Positions 738-35,252 of a DNA stretch of 64,000 nt are shown here, piece by piece. The notes under the pieces are model-generated. The model had not been told where the DNA came from. It ran no database searches and worked only from the letters and a program-made list of their open reading frames with translations. The DNA comes from Candidatus Riesia pediculischaeffi. GTDB taxonomy: Bacteria > Pseudomonadota > Gammaproteobacteria > Enterobacterales > Enterobacteriaceae. The first letter of the stretch is position 1; each line of letters begins with the position of its first letter. The stretch lies in NCBI RefSeq assembly GCF_002073895.1, contig NZ_CP012839.1, positions 20,464 to 84,463 of the forward strand. The letters are read 5' to 3'. Made by a program: the position numbers and the translations under genes.

Positions 738-1433
738 TCAAAAAATATATCTTGATTTAATATACTTCTCCATTGGATAAGATTGCCAATCAGAAATATC
801 TGGTATTATTCCAATGCAAGGGTATGGAATCATATGAAGAAGAGAATAAAAATAATTACTATGAAATTTCTTTTTTAAAGAAAATCTATTCGCCACCCAT
901 CCAACGATCTTAAGATTACTGTTTTGAACAGCCTCTACTGTCAGTAGAGCATGGTTGATACATCCGATTTTAAAAGAAACTGTCAATATTATAGGAATTT
1001 CTCTTGATTTTACCCAGTCGGATATCTTCATATCAAATGAAAGTGGAGTATACCAACCACCGACTCCTTCAACCACGATAAAATCTGCTTTTCTTTTTAA
1101 ATTTTCTAGTCCAAAATTTATGACTTCTAGATTTATCTCTCTTCCGTTTATTCTGCTTGCAATATTAGGGGATGTTTTTTGAGAAAAAACGATCGGACTA
1201 ATCTCTGAATCACTTAATTTCAAATCACTGTATTTTCTTAGCAGGGATATATCAGAATTTATAAAATTTAATGAACTTTTCTCTGAAACACCTGTAGAAA
1301 CTGGTTTATAACCAACGGTTGTGTATCCTACATTACTTGCTTTCTTCAACATTATGCAACTAACTACAGTTTTCCCAACATCTGTATCTGTTCCTGTTAT
1401 GAAAAAACATCTATTCACGATATAAAGTTCCAA
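738..1433 (-). CDS. bioD: ATP-dependent dethiobiotin synthetase
   Basis: BioD closes the ureido ring of dethiobiotin from 7,8-diaminopelargonate, CO2 and ATP, the penultimate step of biotin synthesis in the cytosol. The 231-residue product has the P-loop 'TGTDTDVGKT' at residues 13-22, 'GYKPVSTG' at 41-48 and the carboxylate-binding 'VEGVGGW' at 121-127, followed by 'GCINHALLT' and 'GWVANR'. Length is close to the 225 residues of E. coli BioD. It is the last gene of the bioBFCD operon and overlaps the end of bioC by 23 bases. The real start may be a GTG five codons downstream of the ATG used here, which would align better with the E. coli N-terminus. No damage is seen. Confidence 0.95.
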   Translation of the reverse strand: MELYIVNRCFFITGTDTDVGKTVVSCIMLKKASNVGYTTVGYKPVSTGVSEKSSLNFINSDISLLRKYSDLKLSDSEISPIVFSQKTSPNIASRINGREINLEVINFGLENLKRKADFIVVEGVGGWYTPLSFDMKISDWVKSREIPIILTVSFKIGCINHALLTVEAVQNSNLKIVGWVANRFSLKKKFHSNYFYSLLHMIPYPCIGIIPDISDWQSYPMEKYIKSRYIF

Positions 1434-2178
1434 ATATAATTTTGTAGGTTAACGGAAACATATTATCTACGTTTGGATAATTTCGAACCAATTTCTCCAA
1501 ATACTTTTGAGTCATCAAACCTTTTTTTTTCCTTTTATATAGATAGCTTGCCCCTATCCCTTTAATGGAATTTAGCAAGCTCTGAAAGGAAGGATATAAA
1601 AAGTACCAAGATATTTGCTCTAATTTATTCAACCAAATTTTACAAGCAATCTCAACTTCTTCGTAAGTTAAAAAAGAATTAAAGTGGGAAAGGTTATTCA
1701 CTTTTTCCCAACATTGTCTTAATTCCTTCAAAGAACCATCCGCTAATGTCGTAAACACAACCAAACCTCCATATTTAGTCACTCTATACATCTGACTAAG
1801 TGGAATATGGATATTTCTACACCACTGTAAAACTAAATTACTAAAACATAGATCAACGCTATTACTCTTTAACGGAATCGATTCTATATCTGCTTGCATA
1901 TAACAAGACGCAGAATTTCCTACCTTAGCTACTTTCAGCATCTCCTGTGATATATCCAATGCGATCACACGTTTACCGATCAGTTTCCACTTCTTGCTAA
2001 AGAATCCAGTTCCACATCCAGCATCTAATATAATTTTCTGTTCGAAACTATCAGAACATTTTCTAAAAAGACGTGTCCCAATTTTTCTTTGTAATATCGC
2101 AAAATCATCATAATATTTTGCTGCTCTTCCGAAAGAAAAAGCGATAGCATTCTTATTGTTCATATTCATTTTGATCAA
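1411..2178 (-). CDS. bioC: Malonyl-ACP O-methyltransferase, biotin synthesis
   Basis: BioC methylates malonyl-ACP with S-adenosylmethionine, so that the fatty-acid machinery can build the pimeloyl chain of biotin. The 255-residue product starts with the family signature 'FGRAAKYYDD' and has the SAM-binding motif I 'LDAGCGTGFF' at 51-60, the acidic 'ALDIS' loop and 'DIESIPL'. The C-terminus 'FPLTYKIIFGTLYRE' matches E. coli BioC closely. An ATG three codons into the frame aligns best with the E. coli start. The gene overlaps bioF upstream by 26 bases and bioD downstream, which indicates translational coupling within one transcript. The partner esterase gene bioH is not in this window. Confidence 0.94.
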   Translation of the reverse strand: MIKMNMNNKNAIAFSFGRAAKYYDDFAILQRKIGTRLFRKCSDSFEQKIILDAGCGTGFFSKKWKLIGKRVIALDISQEMLKVAKVGNSASCYMQADIESIPLKSNSVDLCFSNLVLQWCRNIHIPLSQMYRVTKYGGLVVFTTLADGSLKELRQCWEKVNNLSHFNSFLTYEEVEIACKIWLNKLEQISWYFLYPSFQSLLNSIKGIGASYLYKRKKKGLMTQKYLEKLVRNYPNVDNMFPLTYKIIFGTLYRE

Positions 2179-3343
2179 AAAATTCTTTTAAAGAAAGTAC
2201 CAATTTTTCAATATCGACAACATCATGACAAGCAGTAATAACGATTCTAATTCTTGAAGTTCCAAATGGAACAGTTGGAGGAAAGATAGCTTGAGTCCAA
2301 ATGTTTCTTTTAAATAAAAATTCAGACAGTTCAATACACTTCTGATCATTTCCGACAATAATCGGTTGAATTCCACTTTTCGATAGTTCATGTAAGAAGG
2401 GAATCTTATATCTTTTTGTCATCTCTTTAAAAAATTCAATATTTCTTCTCAACTTCTTTCTTAAATGATCAGATTTCTTGACTTGACGAAGTGATTCAAG
2501 TAGAGCGAATGCTTGAGATGCCGGCATCATCGTGCTATAAATTAAATTCTTTGAGTAGTTTAAAAGATAATCTTTCATATCACCACTGCAAAGTATGGCT
2601 GATCCACATATTCCAAAAGCTTTCCCAAAACCTATCATCAATATCTCAGGTCGTATTTGAAACATATCGCAACTTCCTCTTCCTCCTTCTCCAAATACAC
2701 CTATTCCGTGAGCATCATCTACCATCAAATAGGAATCATATTTTTGAGATACTTCATGAATCATTTTTAATTTAGAAAAATTACCATCCATGCTAAAAAT
2801 TCCTTCTGTAAATATGAGATTTTTGTCACCATAAAATTTTTGTAATAACGTCTGTAAAGAGTCTGCAGAATTATGAACAAACCTCTTAAAAGTAGATCTA
2901 CTGAACGCAGCTGCTTCTACAAAAGAAGCATGACTTTTTTTATCTGCAAAAATCGAATCTTTTCTCTTCATAAGAGAAAATACAATACTCTGATTTGCTG
3001 AATAACCAGAACCAAATAGCAAAGCTTCTTCATATCCAAGCCATAATGATAATCTTCTTTCCAAAAGTTCATGTTCTTCACTATACCCAACAATATGTCC
3101 AGAACTTGAACTTCCATTACCATACCTATCTAATCCGATCTTCCAAGATCTTTTAATATCCTTGTTGAAACTTAATCCTAAATAATCGTTACTGGAAAAA
3201 CTAACATATTCTTTATCGTTAAAAGTTATTTTTGTCGGATCATTCTGACGAATTACAAATCTATTTCTCCAAATATTTCTTCTTTTTCTAAGGTAAATTG
3301 ATCTTTTTAAAAAAAATTTCCAACTATTATGAATATGCGTCAT
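2153..3343 (-). CDS. bioF: 8-amino-7-oxononanoate synthase
   Basis: BioF is a PLP enzyme that condenses pimeloyl-ACP with L-alanine to give 8-amino-7-oxononanoate. With the ATG at 3343 the protein has 396 residues (E. coli 384). It shows 'SSNDYLGL' at 50-57, '[10 protein letters not shown]' near 178-187, 'VDDAHG' at 208-213 and the PLP lysine in 'GFGKAFG' at about residue 241. A longer open frame exists to 3391, but those 16 extra residues are not family-like and lie deep in bioB, so 3343 is preferred. It overlaps the end of bioB by 17 bases. All catalytic motifs are intact. Confidence 0.94.
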
Positions 3344-4352
3344 AGAAATCTTCAAAACGTAATTTTTCTTTTGAGGATAAGGATTTGTCATGTGAAAGAT
3401 TGTTTAAATCATCAATTCTCATTACGTCAATATCCAATTTTTTAAATAATGCACGATCTTCCTTCTCATCTGGATTATCCGTAGTCAATAATTTACATCC
3501 AGAAAATACAGAATTAGCCCCTGCCATAAAACATAAAGTTTGCATCTGTTCATTCATATTTTTTCTTCCAGCAGATAACCTTATAAAAGATTGTGGAAGC
3601 ATAATTCTAGCTACGGCTATTGTCCTGACAAAGTCAAAAAAATCTATATCTTCTTTATCAAAGAAAGGTGTACCTTTAATCTTAACTAACATATTGATCG
3701 GAACACTTTCTGGAGTTTTAGGCAAGTTAGCTAACTGAACTAAAAGAGATGCTCTATCTTTCGTTCCTTCTCCTAATCCTAAAATTCCTCCAGAACATAC
3801 TTTAATTCCAGCTTTTTGTACTTTTTCAATTGTTTCAAGCCTTTCATGATATTTCCGAGTGGTAACAATTTTTTCATAAAATTCCTCAGAGGTATCTAAG
3901 TTATGATTATAATAATCCAACCCAGCTTCTGACAAAGAACGTGCTTGATTCTCACTTAAACTTCCAAGCGTCATGCAAGTTTCTAAACCTAAAGATTTCA
4001 CCTTCCTGATGATCTTTCGTAAATACGGTATATCTCTATCATGAGGATTCTTCCAAGCTGCTCCCATACAGAACCGGGTAGCTCCTATTTTTTTGGCTTG
4101 CTTTGCAGAATCCACTATCTCTTTAATTTCTAACAGTTTTTTCGTTTTTAGTTCTGTCCTATATCGTGCACTTTGCGAACAATACTTACAATCTTCTGGA
4201 CAGTTTCCAGTCTTAATTGATAATAAAGTACTAACTTGGATTGATTGCGGATTAAAATAAATTCTATGCGTCTGCTGAGCCTGAAAGATGAGTTCAAAAA
4301 ACGGTAGACCGAACAGCTTGTCTGCTTGGGAAATTGTCCACTTTTTCTTCAT
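3327..4352 (-). CDS. bioB: Biotin synthase, radical SAM
   Basis: BioB inserts sulfur into dethiobiotin using a radical-SAM [4Fe-4S] cluster and a sacrificial [2Fe-2S] cluster. The 341-residue protein (E. coli 346) carries the CxxxCxxC motif at Cys51, Cys55 and Cys58, then 'CMGAAWKNP', 'CMTLGSL' and 'YNHNLDTS', and the late 'RLSAGR' motif that ligates the second cluster. It is the first gene of bioBFCD and faces bioA across an 89-base gap. An AGAGG ribosome binding site lies 5 bases before the ATG (4358-4362). Iron-sulfur assembly genes must be elsewhere in the genome. Confidence 0.96.
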
Positions 4353-4441
4353 TTAAACCTCTTGTTGAAGATAACAAATATTCTTAATTAAAATTAATTA
4401 TGATATAAGTAATGAATAAAAATAATTGCATAAATATCAAG
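4353..4441. promoter_or_regulatory. Divergent bioB / bioA control region
   Basis: In E. coli the bioA and bioB promoters face each other across one operator bound by BirA. Here the gap is 89 bases and almost pure A+T. Promoter-like elements are present on both strands, for example TTGAAG and TAAAAT spaced 18 bases apart towards bioA. I do not see the paired half-sites of a BirA operator. The only matching half (TAAACC) is also the ribosome-binding region of bioB. Control by biotin has probably been lost, but this is inference. Confidence 0.4.
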
Positions 4442-5752
4442 ATGAAAAAATCAGAGATAAATTTCGATTCAAAACATGTTTGGCATCCATACTCTCCTAT
4501 TAATCGTGCCATTTCTTCGATCCCAGCTGTTAGCGCTTCTGGAACAAAAATAAAACTATCCAACGGTAATTATTTAATTGATGGTATGTCTTCTTGGTGG
4601 TCTGCAATACACGGATACAACCATCCAATTTTAAATAAATCGATCAAAAAACAACTACAAAAAATGTCGCATATAATGTTTGGAGGAATTACACATAAAC
4701 CCGCCATTTCTTTATGTAAGAAATTGATTAATATTACATCAAATAAATTAGAATGTGTATTTCTGGCTGATTCCGGATCTGTATCTATAGAAATAGCCTT
4801 AAAAATGGCTGTTCAATATTGGCAATCGAGAGGAAAAAAAAATAAAAAAAAGTTTGTAGCCCTACAATACGGATACCATGGAGATACACTGGGCGCGATG
4901 TCTGTATGTGATCCAAAGAATTCAATGCACAGTCTATATAAAGGATATCTACCAAAAAATTTTTTCACTAGAGCTCCATATTGTAATTTTCATGAAGATA
5001 GAAATCAAGAACATATTTTGTTTCTGGAAAAATTATTCGTTGACCATTCAAATCACATTTCTGCTATGATAATAGAACCTATAGTACAGGGAGCAGGTGG
5101 TATGCGATTTTATCATCCGAATTATCTGAAGAATGTGAGAAAATTGTGCGATCAATACGATGTTCTTTTGATTATAGATGAGATCGCCACTGGTTTCGGA
5201 AGAACAGGTAAGTTTTTTGCTTATGAATATGGTGATATTTTTCCAGATATACTTTGTCTGGGAAAAGCATTAACTGGAGGATATTTAACTTTAGCAGCTG
5301 TTATGACCACAAAAGATATCGCTAACACAATTTCTGAAGGAGAAGCTAAATGTTTAATGCATGGACCAACGTTTATGGCAAATCCGTTAGCTTGTGAGGT
5401 AGCAAACTCCAGCATAGATCTTTTAATAAGTGGTTCTTGGAGAAAAAAAATTAAAAAAATAGAAAAACAGTTGATCGAAGAGCTTGATTCGATCAGATTC
5501 AACGATTTAGTAAAAAATGTAAGAGTTTTGGGAGCGATAGGTGTAGTGGAAATGAAAAACCAAATAGATCTTAATATTTTACAAAAAAAATTTGTGGATT
5601 TAGGAGTATGGATTCGTCCATTTAGAAAAATAATTTATATAATTCCACCTTACATTATTGAAGAGAAAGATTTAACAAAACTTACTGATGCGGTTAAAGA
5701 AGTAATTTTTACGATATCAAACAGTGAGTTCGCATCAGATATAATCATCTGA
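4442..5752 (+). CDS. bioA: Adenosylmethionine-8-amino-7-oxononanoate transaminase
   Basis: BioA transfers an amino group from S-adenosylmethionine to 8-amino-7-oxononanoate, giving diaminopelargonate. It is a class III PLP aminotransferase. From the ATG at 4442 the product has 436 residues and its first 17 align without gaps to the E. coli start, ending in 'HVWHPY'. An ATG at 4412 would add ten unaligned residues. Visible motifs are 'DGMSSWWSAIHGYNHP' at 47-62, 'GYHGDT' at 144-149, 'DEIATGFGRTG' at 246-256 and the PLP lysine at about 275 in 'LGKALTGG'. The gene is transcribed away from bioBFCD and is intact. With its neighbours it gives the whole ring-assembly part of biotin synthesis. Confidence 0.95.
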   Translation: MKKSEINFDSKHVWHPYSPINRAISSIPAVSASGTKIKLSNGNYLIDGMSSWWSAIHGYNHPILNKSIKKQLQKMSHIMFGGITHKPAISLCKKLINITSNKLECVFLADSGSVSIEIALKMAVQYWQSRGKKNKKKFVALQYGYHGDTLGAMSVCDPKNSMHSLYKGYLPKNFFTRAPYCNFHEDRNQEHILFLEKLFVDHSNHISAMIIEPIVQGAGGMRFYHPNYLKNVRKLCDQYDVLLIIDEIATGFGRTGKFFAYEYGDIFPDILCLGKALTGGYLTLAAVMTTKDIANTISEGEAKCLMHGPTFMANPLACEVANSSIDLLISGSWRKKIKKIEKQLIEELDSIRFNDLVKNVRVLGAIGVVEMKNQIDLNILQKKFVDLGVWIRPFRKIIYIIPPYIIEEKDLTKLTDAVKEVIFTISNSEFASDIII

Positions 5753-23247: not shown

Positions 23248-24206
23248 TTATAAAAATCTATCGAAGATAATTTTCTTTATTCGATTTTGATCAAGGAAGA
23301 ATTTATAAATCCCATTAGATAAATTAAAATTAGCCATGTTGTTAGAACAATGTTCCCAGTAAAAATCCGATTCTGTCATTTTACTACTTGTTTCACAGTA
23401 ACCCATTGAATATGAAATAGGGCTCATGTTGTTGTCTATTGTACCTGGAGAATTTTTTAACTCTTGTAGCAAATATGACGGAATAGTCAAATAATCACAC
23501 CAAGAAAGATCAAAGATATGATTGATGTTTCGAATACTTGCTCCGATAATATTCGTGCGATACTTATTGATTTTATAATACTCATAAACTTCTTTTACAA
23601 AGCTAACTCCAGGATCTTTTAGAGGGAGATCGAAACTCTCTTCATCTTTATTTTTCTGATACCAATCGGTAATTCTTCCAACAAAAGGAGAAATAGAATG
23701 AACTTTAGAAATTGCGCAAGCTTTCGCCTGCGCAAGAGAAAATAATAATGTTAAATTACAGTTAATTCCGATATCTTCCAATCCGCTTGTATACCTTGCC
23801 AAGTGGCGGCGATTTTAATTAACACTCGATCTCTCTGTATACCTTCCTTTTCTAATTTATGAATAACATCTTTAGATTTAGTGAAACAATAATCTTCATC
23901 ATAAGAGAATCTTGAATCGATCTCTATTGATATTCTACCGGGAACTATCTTAAGAATCTCTAATGTCAATTTAACCAAGATAATATTGTACAAATCGGAG
24001 ATAATCTCTTTTTCAGGAAGATTTCTAAAATCAAACGAAGAAAAAATATCTTTTATAAAATAACTATTTTTACGATCTTCAACGAATCTAAGTATCGAAG
24101 AAGGATTGGTGGTGACATCGTGAGGTTGATATCTTCGAATATCTTCTATATCTGATGTGTCAGCCATCACGTTTGTTATGTTTTTTAAGGAATCTAATTT
24201 ATTCAT
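23248..24206 (-). pseudogene. talB: Transaldolase, frameshifted
   Basis: Transaldolase moves a dihydroxyacetone unit between sugar phosphates in the pentose-phosphate pathway. The 5' frame (24206 to about 23790) matches E. coli TalB from 'LKNITNVMADTSDI' through the Schiff-base lysine in 'ILIKIAATWQGIQ'. The 3' frame resumes with 'GINCNLTLLFSLAQAKACA' and runs to the end ('FLDQNRIKKII'). The frame must shift between about 23771 and 23790, where the sequence is also about two codons shorter than E. coli. No homopolymer lies at the break, so polymerase slippage is not an obvious rescue. Otherwise it is full length, suggesting a recent break or a sequence error. Confidence 0.88.
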
Positions 24207-24386: not shown

Positions 24387-25792
24387 TCATTCTTCTTTTT
24401 TAAAGAAGAATTGATGACATAGTCTTAATGTATCATTTGCAAGATCATCTTGAACAACAATGGACATTACTGGATCAAAACGATCTGTAAGGACTAAATA
24501 TATTTTTATATCATAAGAACTTAAAAAGTTTGATAAATTTTTTAAATTTTCCTCGTAAGAAATATTTAAACCTCCAATTATCGATATGATAGACAATTTT
24601 TCTACTATAGTAAAACTTTTTATTTCGTTTTCTTTCTTATCAAACATGAAATTCCTTTTCAATATGTAACAAACACTCTTTTTTTTATGAAAATACAAAT
24701 GTAATTCCTGTTTCTTTGGATTTCGAAGATTTTTAGAAGTTATTATTAATATTTTAAACTCAAAAAATTTGTTAAAAATTCTACATTTAATTTTTTCTAT
24801 AATCTTCTTATTATCGCTATAAATTACAACAACTACTATATTTTTGATACTCGTAATTCCCTTTACTGCCATTAAACAATTTATATTTTTTGAAACATTG
24901 GAGATCAGCGTTCCTGTTGAATGCGGAGAAAAAGTGTTTTTGATAACACATGGAATATTGAACTTACGAATCGGATAAACTGCTCTGTGATGCAATACAT
25001 TTGCTCCAAATTTAGAAAGTAAAATCGCATCTTTATAAGAAATTCTTTTAATCAAATGAGAACATTTAACAATATTTGGATCACAAGAATATATGCCGTT
25101 TACGTCCTTCCATATTTCGCAAATGTCTGCTCTTAAACATACGGAAAGAACAGATGCAGAATAATCTGATCCATTTCTTCCAAGAGTAACAATTTCTTTT
25201 TTGTTGTTTACAGCTACGAATCCAGCCATTAAAATGATGTGGTCTTGTGAGATTTTTAATGAGGAAAATTGATTAATTGATTTGTCTAAGTTAATTTTAA
25301 CGTCTAGATAGTTCGTACAATCGGAAAGTAAAAATTTGATTGGGTTAACAACTGTTGTAGGATAACCGAAAGAATAGAAGATTTCCGACATGATATCAAC
25401 CGATAACTTTTCTCCCATATACATCAATCTAGGATGGATCGTTTCTGAAAGATTTGCTAATCCAACAGAAATTTTTCTTAATTTGTCATAAAAAAAATTA
25501 ATTTCCTTTTCCACCTTAAATTTAATCTTCATAAATCTAAAATGAGAACGATGTATTTTTAATTGTGAAATGAGAGAAAAAAAAAATCCTCAATCCTCCG
25601 AACATGAAATAAAATGTTACCGTTCTTATTTGCTGCTTCAATCGCTTCTAGAATAAAATCTGTTAATCTTCCAGGGGCCGACAATACGATTGCGATCGGT
25701 TCGTATTGAAATTTCTCTATTATGATTTTAGCTACATGAATCATATTTCTATGATCTGCAAGAGATGTTCCTCCAAATTTTAAAACTTTCAT
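24387..25792 (-). pseudogene. thrA: Aspartokinase (ThrA N-terminal half), frame broken at a T10 run
   Basis: Aspartokinase phosphorylates aspartate, the entry to diaminopimelate, lysine, threonine and methionine. The first frame (25792-25559) begins 'MKVLKFGGTSLAD'. The second (25532-24387) carries 'MGEKLSVDIM', 'LGRNGSDYSASV', 'GVYSCDPN' and two ACT regulatory domains. They are joined by a run of ten T on the coding strand (25577-25586). One extra T keeps the frame open across the gap and aligns residue by residue with E. coli ThrA. The protein ends at the junction where the homoserine dehydrogenase domain should start, and thrB and thrC do not follow. RNA polymerase slippage at the run could still give a working kinase. 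About 465 residues are expected. Confidence 0.88.
25577..25586 (-). repeat. Ten-base homopolymer at the thrA frame break
   Basis: There are ten A on the plus strand, T10 in the coding sense. Reading it as eleven joins the two thrA frames. Runs of this length are known slippage sites for RNA polymerase and also common places for sequencing error. Confidence 0.8.
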
Positions 25793-27146
25793 AGAATTTC
25801 CTAGAATTTAATTTTTTAATCTTTTATACGAAAAACATTTCATTTATTTAAAAATGAAAATCGATTTAAAGTTTATTTTTAGAAGATTTTGATATGTTAT
25901 TATATATAAAAAAGTGATCTATTAACTTTTAAAACGGTAATCTATATGGACGTATAAGAAATCAGATAGATTTATGAGATTTGAAAGATAATTTTTAACA
26001 CGTTCCTATGAACCATATAAGAAGAATTCTTATCATTTTAAAAAACATTGGAAACGGAAATAAAATTGTAAATAATCATATTTTCTAAAAATATCGACGT
26101 TGCACTCTCGTGTGTATAAACATTAAAATAACCACGAAAGATATGATCTTTTTAACTTTGAATTAAGATGAAAAATTTTTATAAGATGGATCCTATGATG
26201 TAAAAGCAACGTTATTTAATCGAAATATAGAAAAAAGATCAACTCTATAAAAACGTAGAGATAACATAAACATATCTTTAAATCATGAATTCAACTTTTA
26301 TAAGAACCATAAGTTCGTCTCTATTCGTAGAACAATAAAAATTTTTGAAAAATAATGACTCTATTAATGATTGATCGTTAAAAACGATCAACAACATAAA
26401 TAAAATAATTTCAACGATTCATTAAGTTCCTGAAAGTAAATTCATTAAATCAATGTAACATAACACAACTGAAATAACTTAACAGATGAACAAAATCACT
26501 ATATTAAACATTTTCAATCATTTAATTTTACAAAAAAAAAAAGATATAAAAAATTAAAAAAGATATCGAAGGTATAGATGATCATTAAAACTATCTAATA
26601 TTTTTAAAATTGAAACATATCGAAGTATTTTCTTACATGAGTGTAACAATGTGTTTTGTTCTTAAAGAACATGAGGTTTGATCCCATGTGTTAAGGTTTC
26701 AATTTAGTGTATAAAGAACAAACGTCTTAAGGTTACAAAAATAAGAGATCTACAACGGTAAGAATACTTTTCGTATTAAATGATACGTGATCCAATTCTT
26801 TTAATTTTTTTAGTTTTGATCGAGAAATATGATTGATAATACTATCAATATTTTCAAAAAAATTAAATCTGAAATACGATTGGTAAAGAATATATTAAAT
26901 ATATGCGATGTAATCATGATATTTTTTATAGAATAAGGGTTAAATACAAGAATTATATCTCAAAATATTTACTAAATTTTAGTTGTTATTACAGAAGTTG
27001 ATAGAAGAAATATAGAGAAAGGAAATTACTAATTTCAACATATTAAAATATAATAAATCACACTGCATGACGATAAATTCCTAGATTTTTTATAAAAGCG
27101 ATCTACTATAAAACATTATAAATCTAACACAATCCTATACCATTTT
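25793..27146. other. Long spacer between thrA and ubiE
   Basis: This holds 1354 A+T-rich bases with no convincing protein or tRNA gene. I searched for RNase P, 4.5S and tmRNA core motifs by eye and saw none. No threonine/isoleucine-rich leader peptide before thrA was found. One notable structure is a perfect 10-bp inverted repeat (26607-26616 with 26696-26705) enclosing two smaller hairpins. This spacer is a rearrangement boundary relative to E. coli. Confidence 0.5.
26607..26705. other. Candidate structured RNA or nested inverted repeat
   Basis: AAATTGAAAC at 26607-26616 pairs perfectly with GTTTCAATTT at 26696-26705. Inside the 79-base loop lie a GTTCT/AGAAC hairpin (about 26668-26680) and a bulged hairpin with arms ACATG and CATGT (about 26679-26699) around GG-TTTGAT-CC. 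The GG-TTTGAT-CC resembles a tRNA T-arm, but no acceptor, D or anticodon arm fits. No family is recognised. Confidence 0.3.
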
Positions 27147-29697: not shown

Positions 29698-31172
29698 ATG
29701 AAAAATGGATACAACAGTCTCAGAGATTTCATAGAATTCTTAGAAAGAGAAAATAAATTAAAAAGAGTTCAGCAGGAAATTAGTCCTAATCTAGAAATGA
29801 CTGAAATTTCCAGAAGATCAATATTATCTAATGGTCCTGCTTTACTGTTTGAACAACCTTCTGGATTTTTAAAAGGAAGAGTACTATGTAATCTTTTTGG
29901 AACTATTGAAAGAATCATTATGAGCATCGGTGAAAGAGATATAGGTTCTTTACAGAGAATAGGAAGACTAATAGCTTCTCTGAAAGAACCGAGCGCTCCA
30001 AAAAATTTTTCCGATTTTTTAAGGAAATTGAAAAAGTTTAAAAGTATCTGGTTCACAAAAGTTAAAAAAGTTAAAAATGCACTCTGTCAAGAAATTATTT
30101 TAAAAGGTAAGGATGTTAATCTATTCAACATACCAATCATGAGATGCTGGCCGAAGGATATTGCTCCATTAATAACGTTCGGAATTACTATTACTAAGAA
30201 CTATTTTTTAAACCGATACAACCTAGGGATATACCGACAACAGTTATTGTCTAGAAACAAACTAATAATGAGATGGTTACCCCATCGAGGAGGAGCTTTA
30301 GATTTTCATATCTGGAGAAAAAGATATCCGTCTCAACCATTCCCAGTTGCAGTATCGATTGGAGCAGATCCAGCTACTATTTTAGCATCAGTTATCCCTG
30401 TCCCTAATGAAATTTCCGAATACTCTTTCGCTGGCATTTTGAGAGGTTATAGATCAGAGAAGTGACAAGGTGTATTTCTATCCCTATTGATGTGCCAGCA
30501 AGCTCCGAAATCGTCTTAGAAGGACATATTAATCCAGAAGAACATTCTCAAGAAGGTCCACACGGAGATCATACCGGATATTATGGATCAGTTGAAAAAT
30601 TTCCAGTTCTTACGGTAACGCATATCACTAGAAGAGATAATTATATCTATCATTCCACGTATTCCGGAAGACCATTGGATGAACCGAGCGTTTTGGGGAT
30701 CGCAATGAACGAAATATTGATTCCAATATTGAAAAAAAGATTTTCTGAAATTGTAGATTTTTATCTTCCTTATGAAGCATGTTCTTATAGATTCGCAGTT
30801 ATCACAATTAAAAAGGAATATGCGGGTCAAGCTAGACAAGTGATGATGGGGACATGGACATATTTGAAACAATTTATGTATACTAAATTCATTGTAGTAT
30901 GTGATGATGATATTAACGCAAGGGATTGGAAAGATGTAATTTGGGCGATATCGACTAGATCTGATCCAGAAAGAGATATCTTATTTATAAAAAATACTCC
31001 TATGGATTATCTTGATTTCTCTTCAAAAATTTCGGGTTTAGGGACAAAAATGGGGATCGATGCAACTAATAAGTTTCCAGAAGAAACGAATAGAAAATGG
31101 GGAGAAATAATCAAAATGGAAAGATCCGTTCAAAAAAGAGTTGAAGAAGTTTGTAGATATCTAAAAATTTAG
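29698..31172 (+). pseudogene. ubiD: 3-octaprenyl-4-hydroxybenzoate decarboxylase, split by a small indel
   Basis: UbiD decarboxylates prenylated 4-hydroxybenzoate using prenyl-FMN made by UbiX. Frame 1 (29698-30465, 255 residues) matches the E. coli N-terminal half, including 'NLGIYRQQLLSRNKLIMRW' with the active-site arginine, and ends '[10 protein letters not shown]'. Frame 2 (30462-31172, 236 residues) begins at a GTG that overlaps the TGA stop as GTGA, and holds '[13 protein letters not shown]' with the catalytic glutamates, 'HGDHTGYYG' and '[13 protein letters not shown]'. Removing one GA from 'CAGAGAAG' (30455-30462) restores a single 490-residue protein. Either the gene is broken, or two coupled chains are made that share one active site. 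ubiX is intact at 61.7 kb. Confidence 0.88.
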
Positions 31173-33568: not shown

Positions 33569-34222
33569 ATGAACTATACTTTATCGAAATTGTCGTATGC
33601 TTATGAAGATTTAGAACCATTTCTAGATAAAAGAACAATGGTTTTGCACCATAAGATGCATCACCAGACATATGTAAATAACACAAATCAAATACTGAAA
33701 AATATAAAAATCGATTTTAAGAAACGTGATATATTTGATCTAATCCAAAATTTGGATATCATTTCTGACCGTGATATAAAAAGGTCATTGCTGAATAATG
33801 CCGGCGGACATGCTAATCATACAATTTTTTTTCAAGGATTAAAATTAGGTACGAATTTAAGTCAAGAAATGAAGAAAGAGATCAGTTCACACTTTAACAG
33901 CGTAGAAAATTTTAAGAAACTGTTTGAAGAAACTGCTATATCTTTTTTTGGATCAGGATGGGTTTGGTTAGTGTTAAAAAATAGCAAGTTAGAGATCTTG
34001 AGCACTGTTAACCAAGAAAATCCACTTATGTATAACAATTCAGCTAATTTTTATTATCCTATCTTCGGAATAGATTTATGGGAACATTCTTATTATTTAA
34101 AATACCAAAATCGTAAAAAAGAGTATATTCAATCTTTCTGGAATATACTAAGTTGGGAAGAGGCAGAAAAAAGATTCACAACGGGAATAAAATTGATCCG
34201 TAAAAAGATTAATGATAATTAG
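33569..34222 (+). CDS. sodA: Superoxide dismutase, manganese type
   Basis: This enzyme dismutates superoxide in the cytosol. The 217-residue product (E. coli SodA 206) has the metal ligands in 'MVLHHKMHHQTYVNN' (His27), 'GGHANHTIFFQGL' and 'GIDLWEHSYYLKY' (Asp and His). The glutamine in 'TVNQENPL' is the position typical of the Mn enzyme. A strong RBS (AGAGGAAA) precedes the ATG. It is convergent with trpS, whose end overlaps it by four bases. In E. coli sodA is not beside trpS, so this is a rearranged junction. Retention points to oxidative stress in the host cell or an active respiratory chain. Confidence 0.95.
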   Translation: MNYTLSKLSYAYEDLEPFLDKRTMVLHHKMHHQTYVNNTNQILKNIKIDFKKRDIFDLIQNLDIISDRDIKRSLLNNAGGHANHTIFFQGLKLGTNLSQEMKKEISSHFNSVENFKKLFEETAISFFGSGWVWLVLKNSKLEILSTVNQENPLMYNNSANFYYPIFGIDLWEHSYYLKYQNRKKEYIQSFWNILSWEEAEKRFTTGIKLIRKKINDN

Positions 34223-35252
34223 AAAATCTTTTCTAATCCGATAGCAGAAAGAACCCTTTCCATAGTTTTTTCTGCTATGATTCTTGCGTGTTCTGATCCT
34301 TCTTTTAACACTTTTTTAAGAAACTTTTCCTGTTTCCTGATATAAAAAAATTTTTTTTGGATTCTTTCCAACTTCTCTATCAATATCTTACAAATAGAAC
34401 TCTTAAAATATGAATAATTCTTACCAAAAAAACGATTCTCTGTTTCTGAAATTGATAGATCAGTTAAACTGGAAAAGATGTTGATCAGATTAGAAATTCC
34501 AGATTTCTTTTCTACATTGAACAATATTTGAGGTGGATCTTCAGAATCAGTACAAGCTGATTTGATCTTCCTCTTAATTAATTCAGAGCTGTCTAGAATT
34601 CTTACAATGTTATTTGAATCTTGATCGGATTTTGACATCTTTTTATACGGAGTTCTAAAACCCATAATTTTGCTCCCAACATCATCAATCATTGCGAATG
34701 GGATAGTAAAGATATCTCCATATCTTCTATTGAAACGACTAGCTATCTTTCTACATATTTCAATATGTTGTTTTTGATCAGCACCGACCGGAACCAAAGA
34801 GGTTTGATATAATAGTATATCGAAGCCATCAAGATAGGATAATTTAAAATTCCGACGTTAGTCTTGTTTCCGTGAGATAAGGAACCTTCTTTAAATTGGA
34901 TCATTCTTTTCAACTCTCCAATTTTAGTACAACAGCTCAATATCCAATTTAGTTGAAAATGTTGTGGAACGCTAGATTGAACAAATATTATGCTTTTTTT
35001 TGGATTAATCCCACATGCTATATACAAAGCTAAAGTATCTAAAATATGCTTTTTAAATGATATTTGTTTCTTGTTAAATTTAGTTATAGCATGTTGATCC
35101 GCAATACAGTAGATACAATTGTATCGATCTTGTATTTTAACCCATTTTTTAATCGCTCCAATATAATTTCCGATAGTGAGAGATCCAGACGGTTGCATTC
35201 CACTAAACACCACTTTTTTTTCTCGATTAAAAAATTCATTCATTTTTAACAA
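34219..35252 (-). pseudogene. trpS: Tryptophanyl-tRNA synthetase, frameshifted by one base
   Basis: TrpS charges tRNA-Trp and is normally essential. The 5' frame (35252 to about 34821) has the class I signature 'SGSLTIGNYIGA' and runs to 'LNYPILMAS'. The 3' frame resumes with 'DILLYQTSLVPVGADQKQH' and includes 'KKMSKSDQDSNN' and a normal C-terminus. The frames join exactly as in E. coli TrpS if one G is added, so that TTCGATATA becomes TTCGGATATA at about 34820-34822. No homopolymer is present. Without rescue both products are useless: one lacks KMSKS, the other lacks the HIGH-like motif. A sequence error is a real possibility. Confidence 0.9.

What the first reader, a model, noticed from the sequence alone, without database searches (positions are those of the whole stretch)
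24387..25792. thrA frame broken inside a T10 run: candidate for RNA polymerase slippage rescue
Both parts of the kinase read as good protein and join in frame if the ten T (25577-25586) are read as eleven. The joined gap region aligns residue for residue with E. coli ThrA. In Buchnera and Blochmannia, slippage at such runs is established as a way to make correct mRNA from out-of-frame genes. The frame downstream has no other damage, which would be surprising if the gene were dead.
Basis: partly seen in the sequence, partly recalled or inferred. Interest (0 to 1): 0.75.

Follow-up and report, generated by a model that had tools for sequence, protein, structure and literature searches.

The report
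Conserved frameshift in a symbiont aspartokinase
The only aspartate-kinase gene found in a chimpanzee-louse symbiont is split by a one-base frameshift at a run of ten T, and the human-louse symbiont carries the same split, so the gene is probably still used through slippage at that run rather than dead.

Summary
In detail: on the minus strand the thrA-derived frame breaks at a T10 run (25577-25586) and continues in the -1 frame. New and decisive: the one same-genus genome held (matching R. pediculicola) has the same split. Its upstream part is also 206 nt, its run is also T10, and the two bounding stops lie at the same positions, although pS is about 0.6. Selection persists: pN/pS is 0.22 (N part) and 0.31 (kinase C part), against a median of 0.26 for 329 orthologs; the ACT-like tail is relaxed (0.58). 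The stretch between the run and the internal start resembles ThrA only in the joined frame. Apart from PyrH no other AA_kinase-family gene was found, while asd, dapA, dapB, dapD, dapE, dapF and murE are present, so the kinase is probably needed for peptidoglycan. It is kinase-only: the homoserine dehydrogenase half is gone. RNA polymerase slippage is the likeliest rescue; -1 ribosomal frameshifting on U_UUU_UUU is not excluded, and no RNA was seen. A new member of a known kind. The window's assembly also has 33 frameshift places away from long runs, so its indels alone prove little.

The parts
25587..25792 (-). N-terminal part of the kinase (206 nt, 68 codons plus 2 bases; holds KFGGTS)
   Evidence: PF00696 positions 3-52; also 206 nt in G001; pN/pS 0.222
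25577..25586 (-). T10 run, the site of the frame break
   Evidence: also T10 in G001 (L005 1447-1456)
25590..25592 (-). TGA that closes the -1 frame just upstream of the run (TAA at the same place in G001)
25559..25561 (-). TAA that ends the zero frame 15 nt after the run (TAA at the same place in G001)
25533..25576 (-). 44-nt junction between run and internal start codon, ThrA-like only in the joined (-1) frame
   Evidence: 33 of 44 nt identical to G001; mean BLOSUM62 to 23 outgroups +0.63 joined against -1.25 and -1.37
24858..25532 (-). C-terminal kinase part, from internal ATG (GTG in G001) for 225 codons
   Evidence: PRK09436 E 7e-84 for the whole C ORF; pN/pS 0.306; boundary
24387..24857 (-). 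degenerate ACT-like regulatory part, open to stop TGA; homoserine dehydrogenase half absent after it
   Evidence: pN/pS 0.577, no third-position excess; no HSDH match
25595..25599 (-). GGAGG, 8 nt before the run; possible stimulator of ribosomal frameshifting, not present in G001

Best explanation
This is a monofunctional aspartate kinase derived from ThrA by loss of its homoserine dehydrogenase half. It is kept to feed aspartyl phosphate through Asd and DapA-F into meso-diaminopimelate for peptidoglycan. The DNA has carried a one-base deficit at a T10 run since before the two louse symbionts split, or the run has returned to that length in both. Full-length enzyme is made because RNA polymerase slips on the T10/U10 run, giving a mixture of messages of which those with 11 (or 8) U encode the whole kinase; the rest give a 77-residue stub. 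Shown here: the conserved split, selection on both halves, the joined-frame coding signal, and the presence of the pathway. Inferred: that slippage occurs, that it is transcriptional, and that the enzyme is active.
For: Same T10, same 206-nt upstream part and same bounding stops in G001. pN/pS 0.222 for the N part and 0.306 for the kinase C part against a median of 0.257 in 329 orthologs (of 765 reciprocal best hits; length and coverage filters); third-position excess 29 of 48 changes (p 1e-4) and 99 of 190 (p 8e-8). The junction scores positive against 23 ThrA proteins only in the joined frame, in both genomes. Of A/T runs of 10 or more in aligned coding ORFs, T runs are 2 of 28 in G000 and 1 of 40 in G001, and thrA's is the only one of T that is at least 10 in both. 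The family search gives three matches: PyrH and the two halves of this gene, while asd, dapA, dapB, dapD, dapE, dapF and murE match in both genomes. G001's own frameshifts relative to G000 lie at runs of 8-13 in 5 of 6 cases, against 6.3% of random windows. Precedent: passages of PMC3017870, PMC5009743 and PMC4972996 describe slippage at such runs in Buchnera and Blochmannia.
Against: No RNA, protein or raw DNA reads. Only two genomes. Long runs conserved in both genomes are not unique to thrA: 8 of the 28 aligned G000 runs of 10 or more are also 10 or more in G001, the other seven being poly-A in intact ORFs, so conservation of the run is not by itself proof of selection for slippage. The whole C part has pN/pS 0.412, as high or higher than all but 4.3% of the orthologs, and the 15-codon junction 0.573. 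The DapC/ArgD step was not identified (the best ArgD match is BioA). Any ribosomal shift would give the same protein.
Confidence: 0.62

Rival explanations
1. Programmed or fortuitous -1 ribosomal frameshifting: the message holds GAU UUU UUU UUU (AGU UUU UUU UUU in G001), a slippery U_UUU_UUU heptamer in the right register, and tRNA-Phe slips back by one.
For: Register fits in both genomes. In the window a GGAGG lies 8 nt before the run; its role as a dnaX-like stimulator is recalled, not tested.
Against: The GGAGG is absent in G001. RNA folding of four stretches around the sites gave z-scores of -0.18, -0.89, 0.63 and 0.89, so no stimulator structure.
Confidence: 0.14
2. The chromosome really has eleven T, or is mixed for ten and eleven, and both assemblies report ten.
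For: Long runs mutate fast. The window's assembly carries 33 distinct frameshift places relative to G001, in genes such as rpoC, fusA, glnS, rho and sucA, so it has indel problems.
Against: Those 33 places have no run longer than 8 within 20 nt, so they do not look like run miscounting. Seven other runs of 10-11 are read in frame in both genomes. PMC4232544 (passages) says the human-louse genome came from long-read technology, unlike the strain that paper sequenced; how PTSK was sequenced I could not find.
Confidence: 0.11
3. The gene has become two genes: a 77-residue N piece and a 381-residue C piece started by reinitiation at the internal ATG/GTG 26 nt after the first stop; the two chains assemble.
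For: A start codon at the same place in both genomes (ATG, GTG) with the same 26-nt spacing; both pieces under selection.
Against: The 44 nt before that start read as ThrA in the joined frame without a gap against 23 outgroups. The 26 nt upstream of the internal start are 21/26 identical between the genomes, against a mean of 11.7 upstream of 126 other aligned starts; but 7 of those 126 are as high, so this is suggestive only.
Confidence: 0.08
4. A recently dead gene; the symbiont gets DAP precursors or aspartokinase activity elsewhere.
For: Frame broken, regulatory part relaxed, dehydrogenase half lost.
Against: The break predates or recurs in both species and yet both halves stay under selection; no other aspartokinase found; the downstream pathway is kept.
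Confidence: 0.03

Closest known systems
Homopolymer frameshifts rescued by transcriptional slippage in Buchnera and Blochmannia (Tamas 2008 and Wernegreen 2010, seen only as cited in PMC3017870 and PMC4972996)
   Same: Obligate AT-rich insect symbiont; one-base break at an A/T run of 9 or more; rest of the gene intact and under selection; shared between species
   Different: Run is poly-T in a genus where 26 of 28 and 39 of 40 aligned coding runs of 10 or more are poly-A; gene is the only aspartokinase found and has also lost a whole domain; no RNA evidence yet
ThrA, bifunctional aspartokinase/homoserine dehydrogenase I
   Same: Sequence, order of neighbours (talA, dnaK, dnaJ, nhaA, rpsT-like, ribF, ileS, lspA) and kinase motifs
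   Different: Homoserine dehydrogenase half, thrB and thrC not found; ACT-like part degenerate; frame broken
dnaX-type -1 ribosomal frameshifting
   Same: Slippery heptamer in register
   Different: No conserved upstream Shine-Dalgarno-like stimulator and no supported downstream structure

Membership tests
Slippage-rescued homopolymer frameshift of insect endosymbionts | Single frame break at an A/T run of about 9 or more | tested here: met
   T10 in both genomes
Slippage-rescued homopolymer frameshift of insect endosymbionts | Remaining reading frame intact and under purifying selection | tested here: met
   pN/pS 0.222 and 0.306 in the N and kinase parts; the ACT-like tail is relaxed, 0.577
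Slippage-rescued homopolymer frameshift of insect endosymbionts | Frameshift kept across related lineages | tested here: met
   1 of 1 other same-genus genome held
Slippage-rescued homopolymer frameshift of insect endosymbionts | Messages of mixed run length and a full-length product | not testable with these tools
   no RNA or protein data
-1 programmed ribosomal frameshifting | X_XXY_YYZ heptamer in register | tested here: met
   U_UUU_UUU in both genomes (sequence; frames)
-1 programmed ribosomal frameshifting | Conserved stimulator (upstream SD-like element or downstream structure) | tested here: not met
   GGAGG in the window only; fold z-scores between -0.89 and 0.89
ThrA, bifunctional aspartokinase/homoserine dehydrogenase I | Kinase half with catalytic motifs | tested here: met
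   PRK09436 E 7.3e-84 (282 bits, below the 726 cut-off for the whole protein), alignment
ThrA, bifunctional aspartokinase/homoserine dehydrogenase I | Homoserine dehydrogenase half | tested here: not met
   no tblastn match for E. coli residues 465-820 at E 1e-3 in either chromosome

The most novel reading that the evidence does not exclude
The slip site has been kept because it throttles the enzyme. With the dehydrogenase half gone and the ACT-like part decaying, feedback control of aspartate kinase is lost, and a fixed, low yield of in-frame message from the T10 run may now set the flux into diaminopimelate: a mutation turned into a constitutive expression limiter.
Probability: 0.1. Interest if true: 0.75.

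Novelty: new member of a known kind. Interest (0 to 1): 0.5.

Why it matters
If the joined product is confirmed, an enzyme on which peptidoglycan depends has been made from an out-of-frame gene through about 5.4 million years (date from PMC4232544, passages) in symbionts that the same paper calls the fastest-mutating of the insect symbionts compared. It would extend the Buchnera/Blochmannia phenomenon to louse symbionts, give a poly-T case, and warn that such a gene may be called a pseudogene. It can be tested in louse RNA-seq.

Tried and rejected
Dead pseudogene: rejected for the reasons given under rivals. Assembly error in the window alone: rejected because G001 has the same break. Chance: rejected. 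A second aspartokinase: looked for with PF00696 (the other gene is PyrH) and with E. coli LysC and ThrA, not found; MetL was not used as a query.

Led nowhere: the search for related loci in genome contigs found no relative. A typed N-terminal pattern found three unrelated MAG contigs, not Riesia. Phage and plasmid collections gave only ThrA-like relatives under 60% identity. A promoter and terminator scan gave 16 promoter-like sites against 18.7 expected and no terminator. A first frame-scoring of the junction was out of register by one residue and scored the joined frame negative; one search repeats it in register. One search failed in its last part because of N letters; one search repeats that part. 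No structure was predicted.

Print search: Riesia with frameshift, transcriptional slippage, homopolymer and peptidoglycan, and aspartate kinase with frameshift and endosymbiont. The listings show no title on this gene; of those papers I looked at passages of PMC4972996 only. Papers seen: PMC8103877 whole text; PMC4232544, PMC12175528, PMC5009743, PMC3017870, PMC4389277 and PMC4972996 passages only; Tamas 2008, Wernegreen 2010, Kirkness 2010 and a fourth, the 2017 louse-symbiont paper, were not held and are recalled or cited at second hand.

Full report
What is there. On the minus strand an open frame starts at ATG 25792 with the aspartokinase motif KFGGTS, runs into ten T (25577-25586) and stops at TAA 25561-25559 after 77 residues. 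A second frame, -1 relative to the first, runs from the T run to TGA 24389-24387; its first start codon is ATG 25532. Read together with eleven T, the two make a 468-residue kinase that aligns with ThrA from residue 1 to the kinase/dehydrogenase border.

Which organism. The contig is 566,667 b with 31.6% G+C. A table in PMC12175528 (passages) lists Riesia pediculischaeffi PTSK from the chimpanzee louse at 566,667 b and 31.7%, and R. pediculicola USDA at 574,390 b and 28.5%. The same-genus genome G001 has 574,389 b and 28.5%. I take the two to be these strains by length and G+C; no tool names them. A search of the genus held 2 genomes, G000 and G001.

The sister genome has the same break. In G001 (locus L005) the N part is 206 nt, the run is ten T, the zero-frame stop and the -1-frame stop before the run lie at the same offsets (231 and 200), though the upstream stop is TGA in one and TAA in the other. 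Synonymous sites differ at about 60% (pS 0.605 in both parts). PMC4232544 (passages) dates the split at about 5.4 million years. This shared break is the main evidence that it is real and old, or at least recurrent: with two genomes I cannot tell one old event from a run that drifts between lengths.

Selection. Nei-Gojobori pN/pS is 0.222 for the 68-codon N part, 0.306 for the first 225 codons after the internal start, 0.577 for the remaining 153, 0.412 for the whole C part and 0.573 for the 15-codon junction; the median of 329 orthologs is 0.257 with a 5-95% range of 0.123-0.406. The whole C part is therefore unusual: 4.3% of orthologs are as high. The excess sits in the ACT-like tail, where changes show no third-position bias (63 of 174, p 0.23), whereas the N part (29 of 48, p 1e-4) and the kinase C part (99 of 190, p 8e-8) do. 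The catalytic part is kept; allosteric control is probably being lost (inference).

The junction is coding. Between the run and the internal start, 33 of 44 nt are identical in the two species. Scored against 23 outgroup ThrA proteins, the 15 residues average +0.63 (G000) and +0.39 (G001) in the joined frame, against -1.25/-0.37 in the zero frame and -1.37/-2.18 in the +1 frame. The 26 nt before the internal start are 21/26 identical; upstream of 126 other aligned starts the mean is 11.7, but 7 of 126 reach 21.

Why the enzyme should be needed. A PF00696 search of the window's genome gives three matches: the two halves of this gene and one other, which is PyrH. E. coli Asd, DapA, DapB, DapD, DapE, DapF and MurE match in both chromosomes; ThrB, ThrC, LysA and the dehydrogenase half of ThrA have no match at E 1e-3. 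The only ArgD match is BioA, so the DapC step is not accounted for. The simplest reading is that aspartate kinase now serves diaminopimelate for peptidoglycan alone.

Mechanism. The joined frame needs one base more (or two fewer) in the message, or a ribosome that slips back by one. T10 is within the range for which bacterial transcriptional slippage is described (runs of 9 A or T, PMC5009743 passage), and such breaks in Blochmannia are treated as functional, with about 30% full-length transcripts in earlier work (PMC3017870 passages). The message also holds U_UUU_UUU in the proper register, so -1 ribosomal frameshifting is possible. A GGAGG lies 8 nt before the run in the window but not in G001, and folding gives no structure beyond shuffles. 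I favour RNA polymerase slippage at 0.62.

How special is the run. In aligned coding ORFs there are 28 runs of 10 or more in G000 and 40 in G001; T runs are 2 and 1. Eight G000 runs of 10 or more are also 10 or more in G001: thrA, and seven poly-A runs in rne, plsC, cdsA, bamA, rnhA, dxs and murC. So long runs can persist in genes that are in frame, and persistence alone proves nothing about slippage; it also shows that runs of this length are read without frame loss in both assemblies.

Caution on the assembly. Tblastn of 452 ORFs of each genome against the other gives 6 frameshift places in G001 and 33 in G000. Those in G001 have a longest nearby run of 5, 8, 9, 10, 11 and 13; those in G000 of 2 to 8, while random windows of 48 nt reach 8 in 6.3% and 4.3%. 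The G000 places hit rpoC, fusA, glnS, rho, sucA, cyoB and ubiD among nine genes tested. I read most of them as assembly indels (inference). could not see thrA, because both genomes share its break.

Verdict. A real, shared frameshift in a gene that is still under selection: a new member of the class of homopolymer frameshifts known from Buchnera and Blochmannia, with rescue by slippage likely but unproven.

Noticed in passing
window 23248-24206 (talA), 29698-31172 (ubiD), 34219-35252: Genes split in the window but whole in G001, with no run of 6 or more near the break; 33 such places chromosome-wide, also in rpoC, fusA, glnS, rho, sucA. They look like assembly indels.
   Followed up: partly
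G001 (loci L065-L093); whole counterparts in G000 at 126007-126837, 183957-186152, 429170-431281, 532833-533402, 534144-535094: Relative to G000, G001 has breaks at long A runs in prmC (A10), priA (A11), recG (A13), rluD (A9) and near rplS (A8; in an N-terminal extension before the L19 domain): further slippage candidates.
   Followed up: partly
L105 1506-2420 (G006): Another 500-kb symbiont of the same family has ThrA cut to 304 residues, without the ACT and dehydrogenase parts, next to a DnaK-like ORF: a parallel loss of the same half.
   Followed up: partly
window 738-5752: Biotin genes bioD, bioC, bioF, bioB (minus strand) and bioA (plus strand) together, open in the window.
   Followed up: no
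window 25800-27146: About 1.3 kb without an ORF of 80 residues or more between the kinase gene and a ubiE-like gene: a possible eroded stretch.
   Followed up: no
L040, L044, L045, L052, L054-L055 (G000): A10 or A11 runs of the same length or within one base in both species, in frame, in rne, murC, cdsA, bamA, rnhA, plsC and dxs.
   Followed up: partly
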